Positions 45,371-49,142 of a stretch of DNA of 64,000 nt are shown in pieces (position 1 is the stretch's first letter; every line of letters starts with the position of its first letter). The notes under the pieces were generated by a model. The model made no database searches. It was not told the origin of the DNA and saw only the letters and a program-made list of their open reading frames with translations. The translations under genes and the position numbers were made by a program. The stretch comes from Xanthomonas fragariae (GTDB lineage: Bacteria; Pseudomonadota; Gammaproteobacteria; Xanthomonadales; Xanthomonadaceae): positions 1,860,001 through 1,924,000 of the forward strand of contig NZ_CP071955.1 in assembly GCF_017603965.1 (NCBI RefSeq). Direction: 5' to 3'.

Positions 45371-45511
45371 GAGCGGCTAACAAAACGTAGCAGCAGTCGT
45401 CAGGCGGGCGCGGCCGGCGCGCAGGAACCGGAGTGTACGGGTGGTACATGCCGATTCCGAGCACCGGCCGCGCCCGCCTGGCGGTGAGCGCAGTCGTTTT
45501 GTTAGCCGCTC
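45371..45511 (-). repeat. MITE-like element, complete copy (141 bp)
   Basis: Terminal inverted repeats GAGCGGCTAACAAAACG (45371-45387) and CGTTTTGTTAGCCGCTC (45495-45511) are perfect over 17 bp. A second, inner 17-bp perfect inverted repeat lies at 45401-45417 and 45464-45480. Flanks are TAA on the left and TTA on the right. There is no gene inside. It is in the opposite orientation to the copy at 49001 and is followed 11 bases later by an IS with the same ends. Confidence 0.9.
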
Positions 45512-45522
45512 TTAATGCCTTA

Positions 45523-46387
45523 GAGCGTCTAACAAAACCCCTTGAATCTTGTCTCGCCGGTGGCAAAATTGCGGACATGACACGTCGCAAAGAGATCCCC
45601 ATTGCGCTGTGGAAGCGCATCGAGCCGCTGATTCCCCAAGTGAAGCGTTCGCCCAAAGGTGGACGGCCGCGCATCAGTGATCAGCAAGCCCTCAACGGCA
45701 TCGTCTATGTCTTGCGCACGGGCATGCCATGGGAAGACCTGCCTGTGGAACTGGGCTATGGCAGCGGCATGACCTGCTGGCGCCGGTTGCGTGATTGGCA
45801 AGCCGCCGGTGTGTGGCATCGTCTGCATCAGGTGTTGCTGACCGAGCTGCGTCGCGCCCAGAGGCTGGATCTGAGCCGAGCCAGTCTGGACGCCGCCAGT
45901 GTGGCCTCCCCCGGGGGGCGCCTACACCGGGCCAAACCCGACCGATCGCGGCAAACTCGGCAGCAAACGGCATCTGATCGTGGACCGCAACGGCGTGCCC
46001 TTGGCAGTGTGCGTCACCGGCGCCAATCGGCACGACTCGGTCGTGTTCGAGGAGTTGATCGACGCCTTGCCGCCAATTGGTGGCAAACCAGGGCGCCCGC
46101 GACGTTGGCCAGACAAATTGCACGCCGACAAGGCTTACGACATCGACCGCTGTCGCGCCTTCCTCAAGCAGCGCGGCATCATTGCGCGGATCGCACGCAA
46201 GGGAATCGAGCGCAACGACCGGTTGGGCCGTCATCGCTGGGTCGTCGAGCGCACGCATGCCTGGTTCGCAGGCCTGGGCAAACTGCGCATCCGCTTTGAA
46301 CGCCGCATCGATCTCCACTTGGCGTTGCTCTCGCTTGCATGCTCCATCATCTGCTTACGGCTTCTTCCTGGGTTTTGTTAGCCGCTC
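45523..46387 (+). mobile_element. IS5-family insertion sequence (IS427/IS1031-like), 865 bp
   Basis: The left end GAGCGTCTAACAAAACCCC (45523 on) and the right end GGTTTTGTTAGCCGCTC (46371-46387) are inverted repeats. A TTA target duplication flanks the element at 45520-45522 and 46388-46390. It carries one transposase region. Ends beginning GAG and a TNA target fit the IS427/IS1031 branch of the IS5 family. The ends are the same as those of the short elements at 45371, 47319, 49001 and 3420. Confidence 0.9.
45577..46381 (+). pseudogene. IS5-family transposase, split by a frame change
   Basis: The first frame from ATG 45577 reads MTRRKEIPIALWKRIEPLIP, GGRPRISDQQALNGIVYVLR, GMPWEDLPVELGYGSGMTCW and RLDLSRASLDAASVASPGG. 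The second frame (from about 45900 to 46381) continues GGAYTGPNPTDRGKLGSKRH, LHADKAYDID and RLGRHRWVVERTHAWFAGLG. Together they give a normal DDE transposase. The frames meet at a C5-G6 run (near 45907-45917). The change needed is +1 (or -2), not the -1 used by some IS5 members, so a one-base insertion that inactivates the gene is the simpler reading. Programmed shifting is not excluded. Confidence 0.85.
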
Positions 46388-46548
46388 TTAATGACTGGAC
46401 TGAACACCTAACGTGGGTCAACGCATCGACATGTGCGCGATGTGCTTAGCCGGTCATGCCACGCTGCAGCAGCAGCGACCATGCCGATGCGGTTGGCCCC
46501 GCACCGCAGGGCCCTTCAACATGCCTGCTAGATACTGGCAGCAGCCGG

Positions 46549-47058
46549 TTACTTCTTTGCGGTGACGCCTGGGGTTGCATCGCGCACCAGGAATTCCTCG
46601 GTCAGCGCCGGCAGATGGGCAAGCAGCCAATCGGCCATCGCCTGCTCCTGCGGCAGTATCTGCTCGCACACGCGCTGCGTTTGGATGTCGCCAACGGTCT
46701 TGGCAGCACCCAGCAACGCGGTATAAGTGGCGATCTCCAGGTTTTCGAATACATAGCTGGCCATCGCACCCTTGACGATTTCGTCGGAGGTGGTCATGCC
46801 GCCCATGGCCTGACCAAACGCAGCCACCTTGCCTATGGTGTCCTTGAGCACCGACGGTGAACCGCCCAGACGTTCGATACACGAATCGACCAGGCGCTGT
46901 TGGCTCAACGTCTCTTCCAGATGCTGTTCGATGCGTGCCTTGAGCTGCGGATAGTGCTCGATGCGGGCCGCCTGGGCCTTGAGCATCTGCTCGGCCTGCT
47001 GCTCCATCGCGTGCGCATCGCGCAACCAGTCCATCAAATTTTCTTGGGGTTCGGCCAT
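46549..47058 (-). CDS. DUF892 ferritin-like protein (YciE/YciF type)
   Basis: 169 residues, an all-helical ferritin-like protein: NLMDWLRDAHAMEQQAEQML at the start, HLEETLSQQRLVDSCIERLG, GGMTTSDEIVKGAMASYVFE and NLEIATYTALLGAAKTVGDI. Glutamates and histidines typical of a di-iron site are present (E19, H35-region, E54, E108-region by eye). Such proteins are induced by general stress. AGGAGAAT precedes ATG 47058. The frame's upstream part (to 47241) is not conserved. A MITE copy lies 260 bases upstream. Confidence 0.85.
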   Translation of the reverse strand: MAEPQENLMDWLRDAHAMEQQAEQMLKAQAARIEHYPQLKARIEQHLEETLSQQRLVDSCIERLGGSPSVLKDTIGKVAAFGQAMGGMTTSDEIVKGAMASYVFENLEIATYTALLGAAKTVGDIQTQRVCEQILPQEQAMADWLLAHLPALTEEFLVRDATPGVTAKK

Positions 47059-47318
47059 GCGGATTCTCCTGTTGTGTGCGATGCGTCCAGGCTGCCGTGC
47101 CGCGCATGAAAGCCACGGCTGTTTCAGGTGAGCGGGGTGTGCGGTATCCACATGGTATTGACACAGCGACACCGGAGGCAGGCCCGCTGCACCTGGATCG
47201 ATTGGCGCACGTAGCGGACGCGTGGGTGACTCATCGGTCATCGGCAGGCCGTGCTACAAGCGCGTAACATCTACAAACACTGTTTCATTGGCGCTGACTG
47301 GACGAAGCAGATCGCTAA

Positions 47319-47460: not shown

Positions 47461-47463
47461 TAA

Positions 47464-47853
47464 GGCTCAGCCACAGCGGCCCCAGACATATACGCGACAA
47501 CATGGCGATCGGGCGAAGGATCGGGTGGTGCCTGCACATCCAGCCGCCGACCGATGTTGCATCGCGGCAAGGGTGTAAATGTTCTCTGCAATCGACGACG
47601 CACGTCGCCAGAGCTGCAAAAATTTCCTGTTCGTCCATGATCGTTGCGGATCAAGATTTTATCGAAACTTCAGGCGTGCCAGTCGGTCTGCGCCGATGCA
47701 TCAACCACATGCGTGTGCAACCGATCGCTCCGCCCGGCGTACAACTGCAACACCCAATTCCTAGCAAAACGACGCAGGCCCTGCGCCGCATTGGCGCAGA
47801 GCCTGCATCCCAGCTCATCAAGACCGGCACGTCATCGGCGTGCCAATACCAGA
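47464..47853. other. 390-bp stretch, no gene seen
   Basis: Only short, unconvincing frames are present. The one clear structure is the hairpin at 47774-47806. The remainder could be a decayed gene; nothing in it is recognisable. Confidence 0.5.
47774..47806 (-). terminator. Strong hairpin, likely terminator of the KGG-repeat gene
   Basis: GCAGGC-C-CTGCGCC / GGCGCAG-A-GCCTGC is a 13-pair stem with one mismatch and a five-base loop. On the minus strand it is followed by GTCGTTTTGC. It lies about 48 bases past the stop at 47854. Confidence 0.65.
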
Positions 47854-48111
47854 TTACGCGGATTCTTCCTGCGGCTTGGTCTGCTTGGAGCGCCCACCCT
47901 TGCTGCCGATACGCGACATATGATCGCGATCGCGGCTCACTGCCTGGCCACCCTTGCGGCCAGCTTCACGTGCTTCGTCGCTGGTAAATTCGTGCGCATT
48001 GCCGCTGGCATGCGCTGCCTTTCCTCCGCTGCTAGCCAGCACACGGCGCTTTTCGGGATCCAATGCGGCAAAGCCGCGCCGGCTACGAGTACTGTTTTGT
48101 AGGTCTTCCAC
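47854..48111 (-). CDS. KGG-repeat general stress protein (YciG/GsiB-like)
   Basis: 85 residues from GTG 48111, with a perfect GGAGG site seven bases upstream. The sequence has repeated glycine-rich boxes of the KGG type: FAALDPEKRRVLASSGGKAA, FTSDEAREAGRKGGQAVSRD and MSRIGSKGGRSKQ. It is small, charged and probably disordered. Family members are stress-induced hydrophilic proteins of unclear mechanism. The longer frame to 48279 has a cysteine-rich, non-conserved extension and was rejected in favour of the GTG. In many bacteria these genes sit near DUF892 genes, as here (46549). Confidence 0.85.
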   Translation of the reverse strand: MEDLQNSTRSRRGFAALDPEKRRVLASSGGKAAHASGNAHEFTSDEAREAGRKGGQAVSRDRDHMSRIGSKGGRSKQTKPQEESA

Positions 48112-49000
48112 TGTGCCTCCTCTCGATGCTTCGGTTACGACGTTGGTAATGGGCTCAACGCAACAATCGTGCCAACCCGCAAAGCGAGGCCATACGGTGC
48201 AGAACAAGCAGATGCAGGAAAAAACAGCTGCGCTCGCTGCGCAAATCTTGCACTCCTGCCTTACCTCATGTGATGGCATCGCTCCGGCTTTTGGATAGCG
48301 CTATCAACACATGGAGCAGAGCCACTCAGCCGATCACCCGCGCCGCACGATTACAGCAGCGTGATCGCTTGCGCACGCACGCTCGGTTACTCCTGCAGGA
48401 AGCGCCGCTCCAAACCGGCACGGTAGGTTTGCCAGCAGCCGGGATACCACGCTGCGGTGTGCATTGGTCACAGGCGGCGTACATGGTTAAGAAACCGGTG
48501 GCGTGCAAGGCGCGCTGAAGTTCTTGCAGCAACGCGCTGCAGACAATGCCGGCAGACTCAATCTGTTGGTCGCAGCCGCAGAGATAGGCCGCACTGATGC
48601 AACTGGTCGCCGCAACCGCGGGCCAGATGCTGGTGCATATCGATCCGCACGAAATCAACGACAGCGACGAATACCAATTCCGTCCGGCTCTGGATGCCAC
48701 GTGTGGCCGGTACGCGCAAGCGGCCGCACTGGATCATGGTCAGCGCCGCGACGGGTGCAACCAACGCGTGGCACAGCGAGCGCGCACTGTGTTCGAGCAG
48801 CTCCATCCCACCAAGATCGGTGGGCACCACGCCCGACCAGTCGAAGTGGCGTTCCTGCGTTTTGTCGTCCGGAGCAAGCCGCATGCCGTAAGGTGCCGTG
48901 TGGAAGATCACACTGCACCGCTACCAGAAACAAACCGAGCTTATCGATGGATGACGAGCATCAGAGATATGGCCTTACCGAGAACCGCCTGCCACGCTAA
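48112..49000. other. 889-bp stretch without an intact gene; possibly decayed
   Basis: Both strands carry frames of 80-160 codons, but none has a convincing start, ribosome site or composition. The most protein-like is on the minus strand, about 48700-48911 (HFDWSGVVPTDLGGMELLEH, then LCHALVAPVAALTMI). It loses sense further on and may be a pseudogene fragment of unknown family. The stretch ends at the TAA target of the element at 49001. Confidence 0.4.
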
Positions 49001-49142
49001 GAGCTGCTAACAAAACGACTGCGCTCACTGCCAGGCGAGCGCGGTCGGTGCTCGGAATCGGCATGTGCCACGCATACACTCCGGTTCCTGCGCGCCGTTC
49101 GCACCCACCTGACGACTGCTCGCTACGTTTTGTTAGCCGCTC
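49001..49142 (+). repeat. MITE-like element, complete copy (142 bp), opposite orientation
   Basis: Ends are GAGCTGCTAACAAAACG (49001-49017) and CGTTTTGTTAGCCGCTC (49126-49142), matching at 16 of 17 positions. The flanks are TAA direct repeats (48998-49000, 49143-49145). The interior is the reverse complement of the copies at 45371 and 47319, more diverged. Confidence 0.92.

What the first reader, a model, noticed from the sequence alone, without database searches (positions are those of the whole stretch)
45371..49142. A ~142-bp MITE family that shares ends and target site with a neighbouring IS5-type element
Three complete copies (45371-45511, 47319-47460, 49001-49142) and one truncated copy (3420-3516) have 17-bp terminal repeats of the form GAGCGGCTAACAAAACG, and two are flanked by TAA direct repeats. 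The IS at 45523-46387 has the same ends and a TTA duplication. The short elements encode no protein, so the simplest reading is a non-autonomous family moved by this transposase or a close relative. All copies lie beside damaged or accessory genes.
Basis: partly seen in the sequence, partly recalled or inferred. Interest (0 to 1): 0.8.

Follow-up and report, generated by a model that had tools for sequence, protein, structure and literature searches.

The report
Jumping hairpin repeat mistaken for sRNA
The short repeats are copies of a very numerous, protein-less jumping element of Xanthomonas that shares its ends with a nearby insertion sequence, and one half of that element is what databases list as the small RNA 'sX9'.

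Summary
I read 145 separate matches in this 4.1-Mb Xanthomonas genome (some partial), and end counts suggest about 180. Their outer 16 bp and TNA target are those of an 866-bp IS5-type element present in 28 full copies (one base differs at one IS end).

In one close relative, 18 insertion sites were tested and 13 resolved: 11 empty, 2 occupied. In the 10 empty sites aligned base by base, a single triplet stands at the join. So most tested copies jumped after the two species split.

The unexpected point is identity. The four good window copies score above the cut-off for Rfam RF02228 'sX9', a catalogued Xanthomonas small RNA. sX9 is one half of the element. It matches in 35 of 35 Xanthomonas genomes, and all 16 sX9 loci read from other genomes lie in full-length elements.

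I found no sign of RNA function, but my tests are weak. The partner IS is undetected in 11 of 35 genomes carrying the element, so another or lost transposase may serve there. Verdict: an ordinary MITE by mechanism, plus a useful correction of an sRNA family.

The parts
45371..45511 (+). MITE copy 1, complete (141 bp); flanks TAA (45368-45370) and TTA (45512-45514)
45375..45449 (-). Rfam RF02228 (sX9) match inside MITE copy 1
   Evidence: 88.3 bits, cut-off 44
45523..46387 (+). IS5-type insertion sequence, 865 bp; ends GAGCGTCTAACAAAACC / GGTTTTGTTAGCCGCTC; TTA duplication at 45520-45522 and 46388-46390
45577..45966 (+). stretch of the first transposase reading frame that was scanned (N-terminal part; DUF4096, putative IS4/5 transposase)
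45899..46381 (+). second transposase reading frame (DDE domain, 160 aa)
47319..47460 (+). MITE copy 2, complete (142 bp), TAA duplication at 47316-47318 and 47461-47463
47323..47398 (-). Rfam RF02228 (sX9) match inside MITE copy 2
   Evidence: 95.5 bits
49001..49142 (-). MITE copy 3, complete (142 bp), TAA duplication at 48998-49000 and 49143-49145
49063..49138 (+). Rfam RF02228 (sX9) match inside MITE copy 3
   Evidence: 91.3 bits
3417..3515 (-). truncated MITE copy (profile positions 2-99)
3436..3512 (+). Rfam RF02228 (sX9) match inside the truncated copy
   Evidence: 78.7 bits
12332..12451 (-). decayed probable MITE remnant (weak match)
   Evidence: 34.9 bits, E 4e-9

Best explanation
[quoted passage not shown] It is about 142 bp, carries no protein gene, and is nearly one long imperfect palindrome. 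A DDE transposase of the IS5 kind, made by the 866-bp IS with nearly the same outer 16 bp or by a relative of it, recognises the ends and inserts the element at TNA, duplicating those 3 bp. The Rfam sRNA family sX9 (RF02228) is one half of this element: the strand running from near the palindrome's centre to 4 bp inside one end. Its many copies per genome come from transposition, not from duplication of a regulatory gene. Shown: copies, ends, TNA target, empty sites, sX9 = half element, genus-wide spread. Inferred: which enzyme moves it. Also inferred: that the sX9 RNA reported from cells comes from read-through transcripts of the hairpin or from chance promoters.
For: Copies: 123 separate matches in 433 kb of held sequence, most of it fetched around copies (two pairs of these are adjoining pieces), plus 22 in 20 further stretches. 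Target: of 99 copies with both ends exact, 63 have identical flanking triplets, 60 of them TAA or TTA. Empty sites: 11 of 13 resolved sites are empty in G019; 5 of 18 tested were unresolved. Ten were aligned base by base and show one triplet where the element sits in G000, TNA in 8 and CTA in 2. IS: 28 full copies, 24 of them 98-100% alike, with the same outer 16 bp but for one base at one end, and TWA flanks. Outside the ends, IS and MITE share no 11-base word and no credible blast match. sX9: matches the four good window copies and 35 of 35 genus genomes against 0 of 14 controls. Sixteen of 16 sX9-fetched loci from other genomes are full-length elements, 12 of 16 with identical triplets.
Against: Eleven of 35 genomes have the element but no detectable IS of this type, including G013 and G032 with 94 and at least 98 sX9 matches. 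Many MITE copies look older than the present IS burst (median 3.5% from consensus in 84 copies; 24 IS copies 98-100% alike). Thirty-six of 99 two-ended copies lack an identical triplet. No transposition was observed. The window's own IS copy is one base shorter than most and differs from them in frame layout, so it may not be an active source.
Confidence: 0.88

Rival explanations
1. sX9 is a true regulatory sRNA carried as useful cargo: each jump adds another sRNA gene, and also a complementary site in any transcript that reads through a copy in the other orientation.
For: sX9 is in Rfam as an sRNA. In X. campestris, sX9 genes are reported among transcripts raised under copper (passages of PMC10924375). 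The element is alike across the genus (mean column identity 91% in 28 copies that I chose).
Against: Consensus folding gives a covariation term of 0.12, with 3 of 40 pairs showing a two-sided change. No sigma-70-like promoter was found in 45200-49400. Between tandem genes the sX9 strand is 26 same, 28 opposite. Alikeness is also expected of a family that keeps jumping from young copies. These tests have little power: the copies are very alike and other promoter types were not scanned.
Confidence: 0.08
2. The element is moved mainly by another transposase, of which this IS is only a relative with similar ends.
For: The element is abundant in genomes where this IS was not found. In 8 such genomes, 11 of 12 exact IS-like ends belong to MITE copies and the 12th is at a contig edge. 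In this genome one MITE copy (L347) overlaps or adjoins a distant transposase-like stretch (34-50% identity).
Against: Of 423 end matches in this genome 100 were listed. The 20 stretches that I opened to look at unexplained ends all start MITE copies or pieces, not another IS. In the other genomes the IS could have been lost, or missed in draft assemblies.
Confidence: 0.3
3. A REP- or BIME-like host palindrome kept for termination or mRNA stability rather than a mobile element.
For: Very stable hairpin (-107.3 kcal/mol, z -13.2). Mostly between genes; convergent gaps are favoured over divergent ones (27:13 against 19:25 in gaps without a copy, Fisher p 0.03). A terminator-like site lies in copy 3.
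Against: Duplicated target triplets, empty sites in a close relative, and IS-type ends. The context bias is also what selection against insertions near promoters would leave.
Confidence: 0.05

Closest known systems
Rfam RF02228, sX9 (described from X. campestris pv. vesicatoria)
   Same: The model's 76 positions match one half of each of the four good window copies, end to end.
   Different: Rfam draws three small hairpins inside the half. In the whole element most of these bases can pair with the other half. The record treats it as an sRNA gene, not as part of a transposon.
IS5-family insertion sequences with TNA targets (the IS427 group, group name from recall)
   Same: Outer 16 bp but for one base at one end, target triplet, and a transposase in two frames (NCBIfam transpos_IS5_3, Pfam PF13340 and PF01609).
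   Different: The MITE keeps only the ends; its inside is unrelated. ISfinder could not be consulted.
Correia elements of Neisseria and RUP of Streptococcus pneumoniae (recalled)
   Same: About 100-150 bp palindromic MITEs in more than 100 copies, moved by an IS with matching ends, mostly between genes.
   Different: Other ends, other targets, other transposases; no sequence relation was tested.
REP/BIME elements with RAYT transposases (recalled)
   Same: Many intergenic palindromes.
   Different: Here there are IS-type ends and a duplicated TNA target, which REPs lack (recalled).

Membership tests
MITE | short, no protein gene, terminal inverted repeats | tested here: met
   141-142 bp, 17-bp ends, near-complete palindrome
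MITE | target-site duplication | tested here: met
   63 of 99 copies with both ends exact have identical triplets; 28 of 99 differ in the middle base only, 8 otherwise
MITE | dispersed copies and empty sites in relatives | tested here: met
   145 separate matches; 11 of 13 resolved sites empty in G019, 5 of 18 unresolved
MITE | autonomous partner with the same ends in the genome | tested here: met
   28 IS copies share the outer 16 bp but for one base at one end; partner undetected in 11 of 35 genus genomes
MITE | mobilised in trans by that partner | not testable with these tools
   no transposition experiment
IS5 family (the IS at 45523-46387) | IS5-type DDE transposase | tested here: met
   NF033580 133.7 bits for the second frame against cut-off 110; first frame 102.7, below it; PF01609 and PF13340 above cut-off
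IS427 group of IS5 | subgroup by ISfinder sequence comparison | not tested
   ISfinder not available; only the TNA target and two-frame layout agree with what I recall of the group
Rfam sX9 | score above the curated cut-off | tested here: met
   78.7-95.5 bits against 44 at four window places
functional trans-acting sRNA | conserved structure with covariation and a promoter | tested here: inconclusive
   covariation term 0.12 over 28 very alike copies, so little power; no sigma-70-like promoter in 45200-49400, other types not scanned

The most novel reading that the evidence does not exclude
The element is a self-spreading RNA network. Each jump plants both a source of the sX9 arm and, in any transcript that carries a copy in the other orientation, a complementary target. 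sX9 could then act in trans on tens of host transcripts, with targets that differ between strains because the element keeps moving.
Probability: 0.08. Interest if true: 0.85.

Novelty: new member of a known kind. Interest (0 to 1): 0.5.

Why it matters
sX9 is the third row in a published table of the 20 most prevalent bacterial sRNAs, in a study that counted every annotated instance (PMC9029176; section 2.2 and a table passage seen). If sX9 is half of a MITE, such counts and any 'sX9 is up' result need re-reading, because short reads may not be assignable to one locus among 100 or more (inference). The element is also likely to be a strain-variable marker and a natural test of what happens when a hairpin repeat is dropped into transcripts at many sites.

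Tried and rejected
Hairpin-templated (quasipalindrome) correction as a general force: copy 45371 has three changes in its left arm, all toward the right arm. But at the six internal mismatches of the consensus most copies keep the mismatch (84 copies), so it is not general.

Recombination between copies as the cause of unequal triplets: three such sites (419752, 3488490, 1764116) have contiguous flanks in G019, so no rearrangement is needed there. A first impression that TAA/TTA far outnumbers TTA/TAA (14:4 of 84) weakened with 15 more copies (17:8 of 99) and was dropped.

Covariation and strand bias as signs of sX9 function: none found. Phage carriage: no match in the phage collection. Plasmids: only partial matches, in 9 Xanthomonas records and 1 Yersinia record. 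Literature for a link between sX9 and a MITE: none in the listings of searches, nor in the passages that I opened. The founding sX9 paper (Nucleic Acids Research, recalled as Schmidtke 2012) is not held, so it may already mention repeats.

Corrections made on re-checking: the further copies number 22 in 20 stretches, and 15, not 16, of them have both ends exact.
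Full report
Observation. The ends are GAGCGGCTAACAAAACG in the MITE and GAGCGKCTAACAAAACC in the IS, so 16 bp are shared apart from one base at one IS end. Copies 2 and 3 have TAA/TAA, the IS has TTA/TTA, and copy 1 has TAA/TTA. Transcribed, copy 1 would fold into one hairpin of -107.3 kcal/mol, and 0 of 200 shuffles do as well.

Size of the family. The window is part of a 4.1-Mb genome in two contigs. blastn listed 41 places in the query's sense, but only 40 of 351 candidates were scored. A 25-base arm pattern gave 151 places against 0 in the control (100 of the 151 listed). 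The 16-bp end gave 423 places against 0 (100 listed). Taking off at most 56 ends for 28 full IS copies leaves about 180 elements (inference). I took out 69 more stretches. In the held 433 kb, 123 separate matches were found, 84 with both ends exact; two pairs of the 123 are adjoining pieces. Twenty stretches at further end sites gave 22 more matches, 15 with both ends exact and several partial, and no other complete element. One of the 20 (L347) also holds a distant transposase-like stretch beside or under the copy.

Target. Of these 99 copies with both ends exact, 63 have identical flanking triplets and 28 differ only in the middle base. Two differ only in the first base, 4 only in the third, and 2 otherwise. 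Of 28 full IS copies, 25 have identical triplets and 3 differ in the middle base.

Mobility. Flanks of 18 randomly drawn sites without an open frame across the join (22 of 73 candidates passed that filter; 12 of 14 with equal triplets and all 6 with TAA/TTA-type triplets were used) were joined and searched in three relatives. In G019, 11 sites are contiguous and therefore empty, 2 are occupied, and 5 are unresolved. One of the 5 matched only 95 bases, with no element in the 701 bases fetched around it. The occupied sites are 44424 and 3736673, where G019 carries an element beside the matching flank. Ten empty sites were aligned base by base. Eight show a TNA triplet at the join, one of them beside a one-base gap, and two show CTA. 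Flank identities at the empty sites were 79-97%. G029 and G008, whose flanks are less alike, gave fewer whole matches: G029 is contiguous at 2 of the 18 sites and G008 at 1; the rest were partial or absent. In the window itself, copy 3's site is occupied in X. nasturtii and has no room for an element in X. vasicola, X. euvesicatoria, X. cissicola and X. phaseoli. X. cannabis, X. melonis and X. sp. LMG 31884 were tried, but their right flanks aligned too weakly to decide.

Partner. The IS has 24 copies at 98-100% and 4 at 89-91%, plus fragments (40 of 226 candidates scored). It encodes an IS5-type transposase in two frames. Twenty-four of the 28 copies are 866 bp, two are 880 bp, and the window copy is one of two of 865 bp with another frame layout. 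MITE and IS share no sequence beyond the ends, so the MITE is not a simple internal deletion of this IS. The IS DNA, often only as fragments, is found in 24 of 35 genus genomes (14 candidates scored per genome). In the other 11, the second frame finds only distant matches, in 3 of 11. Twelve exact IS-like ends were found in 5 of 8 such genomes; 11 sit on MITE copies and one is at a contig edge, undecided. Draft assemblies could have lost a multi-copy IS, so absence is not proven. Nevertheless the simple story 'this IS moves it everywhere' is not established.

sX9. Rfam's sX9 model matches the four good window copies from model position 1 to 76 at 78.7-95.5 bits, cut-off 44. Relative to the complete copies it begins near the palindrome's centre and ends 4 bp inside one end. 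It is over the cut-off in 35 of 35 genus genomes, with 9 to 98 matches each (98 is the scoring cap), and in 0 of 14 control genomes. In an even draw of 297 family genomes (15 candidates scored each), 43 have a match at E 0.001 or better and 28 exceed the cut-off. Sixteen loci from other genomes were fetched only because of sX9 (those outside G000). All hold a full-length element, 15 of 16 with GAG...CTC ends and 12 of 16 with identical triplets. So sX9 is the MITE.

Is the RNA functional? Three weak tests gave nothing. Consensus folding of 28 chosen copies from many genomes gives a covariation term of 0.12, with 3 of 40 pairs changed on both sides. A sigma-70 scan of 45200-49400 found 0 sites; other promoter types are not covered. 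Between tandem genes the sX9 strand is 26 same, 28 opposite. By a home-made codon-usage gene caller, the 119 copies of at least 91 bp fall into 54 tandem, 27 convergent and 13 divergent gaps, 4 inside called frames and 21 undetermined. Gaps without a copy were 56, 19 and 25. Convergent over divergent gives Fisher p 0.03; divergent against the rest gives p 0.07. This fits selection against insertions near promoters. A processed or read-through hairpin arm is the simplest account of the published sX9 signal (inference).

Literature. Three held papers contain sX9, Xanthomonas and sRNA together, and two contain RF02228. I saw passages of all three and one section of PMC9029176. PMC9029176 lists sX9 third in its table of the most prevalent bacterial sRNAs; PMC10924375 reports several sX9 genes raised under copper. 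None of the passages mentions a transposon origin. The listings of searches showed no paper on it. Term searches in PMC7694677 and PMC4046712 found no MITE. The founding paper is not held, so priority is uncertain.

Verdict. By mechanism this is a new member of a known kind, a MITE with an IS5-type partner. Its interest lies in the scale, the empty sites, and the correction of an sRNA family that is counted among the commonest in bacteria.

Noticed in passing
G000, 99 MITE copies with both ends exact; IS copies L040, L051, L063: In 28 of 99 MITE copies, and in 3 of 28 IS copies, the two flanking triplets differ only in the middle base; only 6 of 99 differ in the first or third base alone. Three such MITE sites are contiguous in a relative, so no rearrangement made them. 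In 29 G019 copies the middle base is not favoured (4 middle, 4 first, 1 third). A donor base carried along at insertion would explain it; unexplained.
   Followed up: partly
45371-46387; G000:C1:16546-17556 and 2587538-2588555: Three of 28 IS copies sit 3-11 bp from a MITE, two of them sharing one TAA with it; a rough uniform-placement estimate is 0.03. In G019 two of 30 fetched MITE loci also abut IS sequence (L286, L309). MITE ends may be preferred targets.
   Followed up: partly
about 46501-48441: The block holding the DUF892-type gene (name from recall) and the next gene is inverted relative to other Xanthomonas species. Its breakpoints do not coincide with a MITE.
   Followed up: partly
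45371-45511: This copy's left arm differs from the family at three positions, each time toward pairing with the right arm; looks like one templated correction event.
   Followed up: partly
G000:C1:1190630-1190916 and four other places: Five pairs of MITE copies or pieces lie 0-5 bp apart, two of them exactly 3 bp apart.
   Followed up: no
L347 (G000:C1:1323523-1325323), 357-947: Distant IS5-type transposase-like stretch (34-50% identity) overlapping or adjoining a MITE copy.
   Followed up: no
23147-23222: Fluoride riboswitch (RF01734) on the minus strand, 48 bits.
   Followed up: no
49736-59980: A 3414-aa open frame of repeats that look autotransporter-like starts about 600 bp after MITE copy 3 (family not scanned).
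   Followed up: no
12332-12451: Decayed MITE-like stretch inside a called reading frame.
   Followed up: no
plasmid collection: Partial matches to the element (32-73% of its length) in 9 Xanthomonas plasmids and 1 Yersinia plasmid.
   Followed up: no
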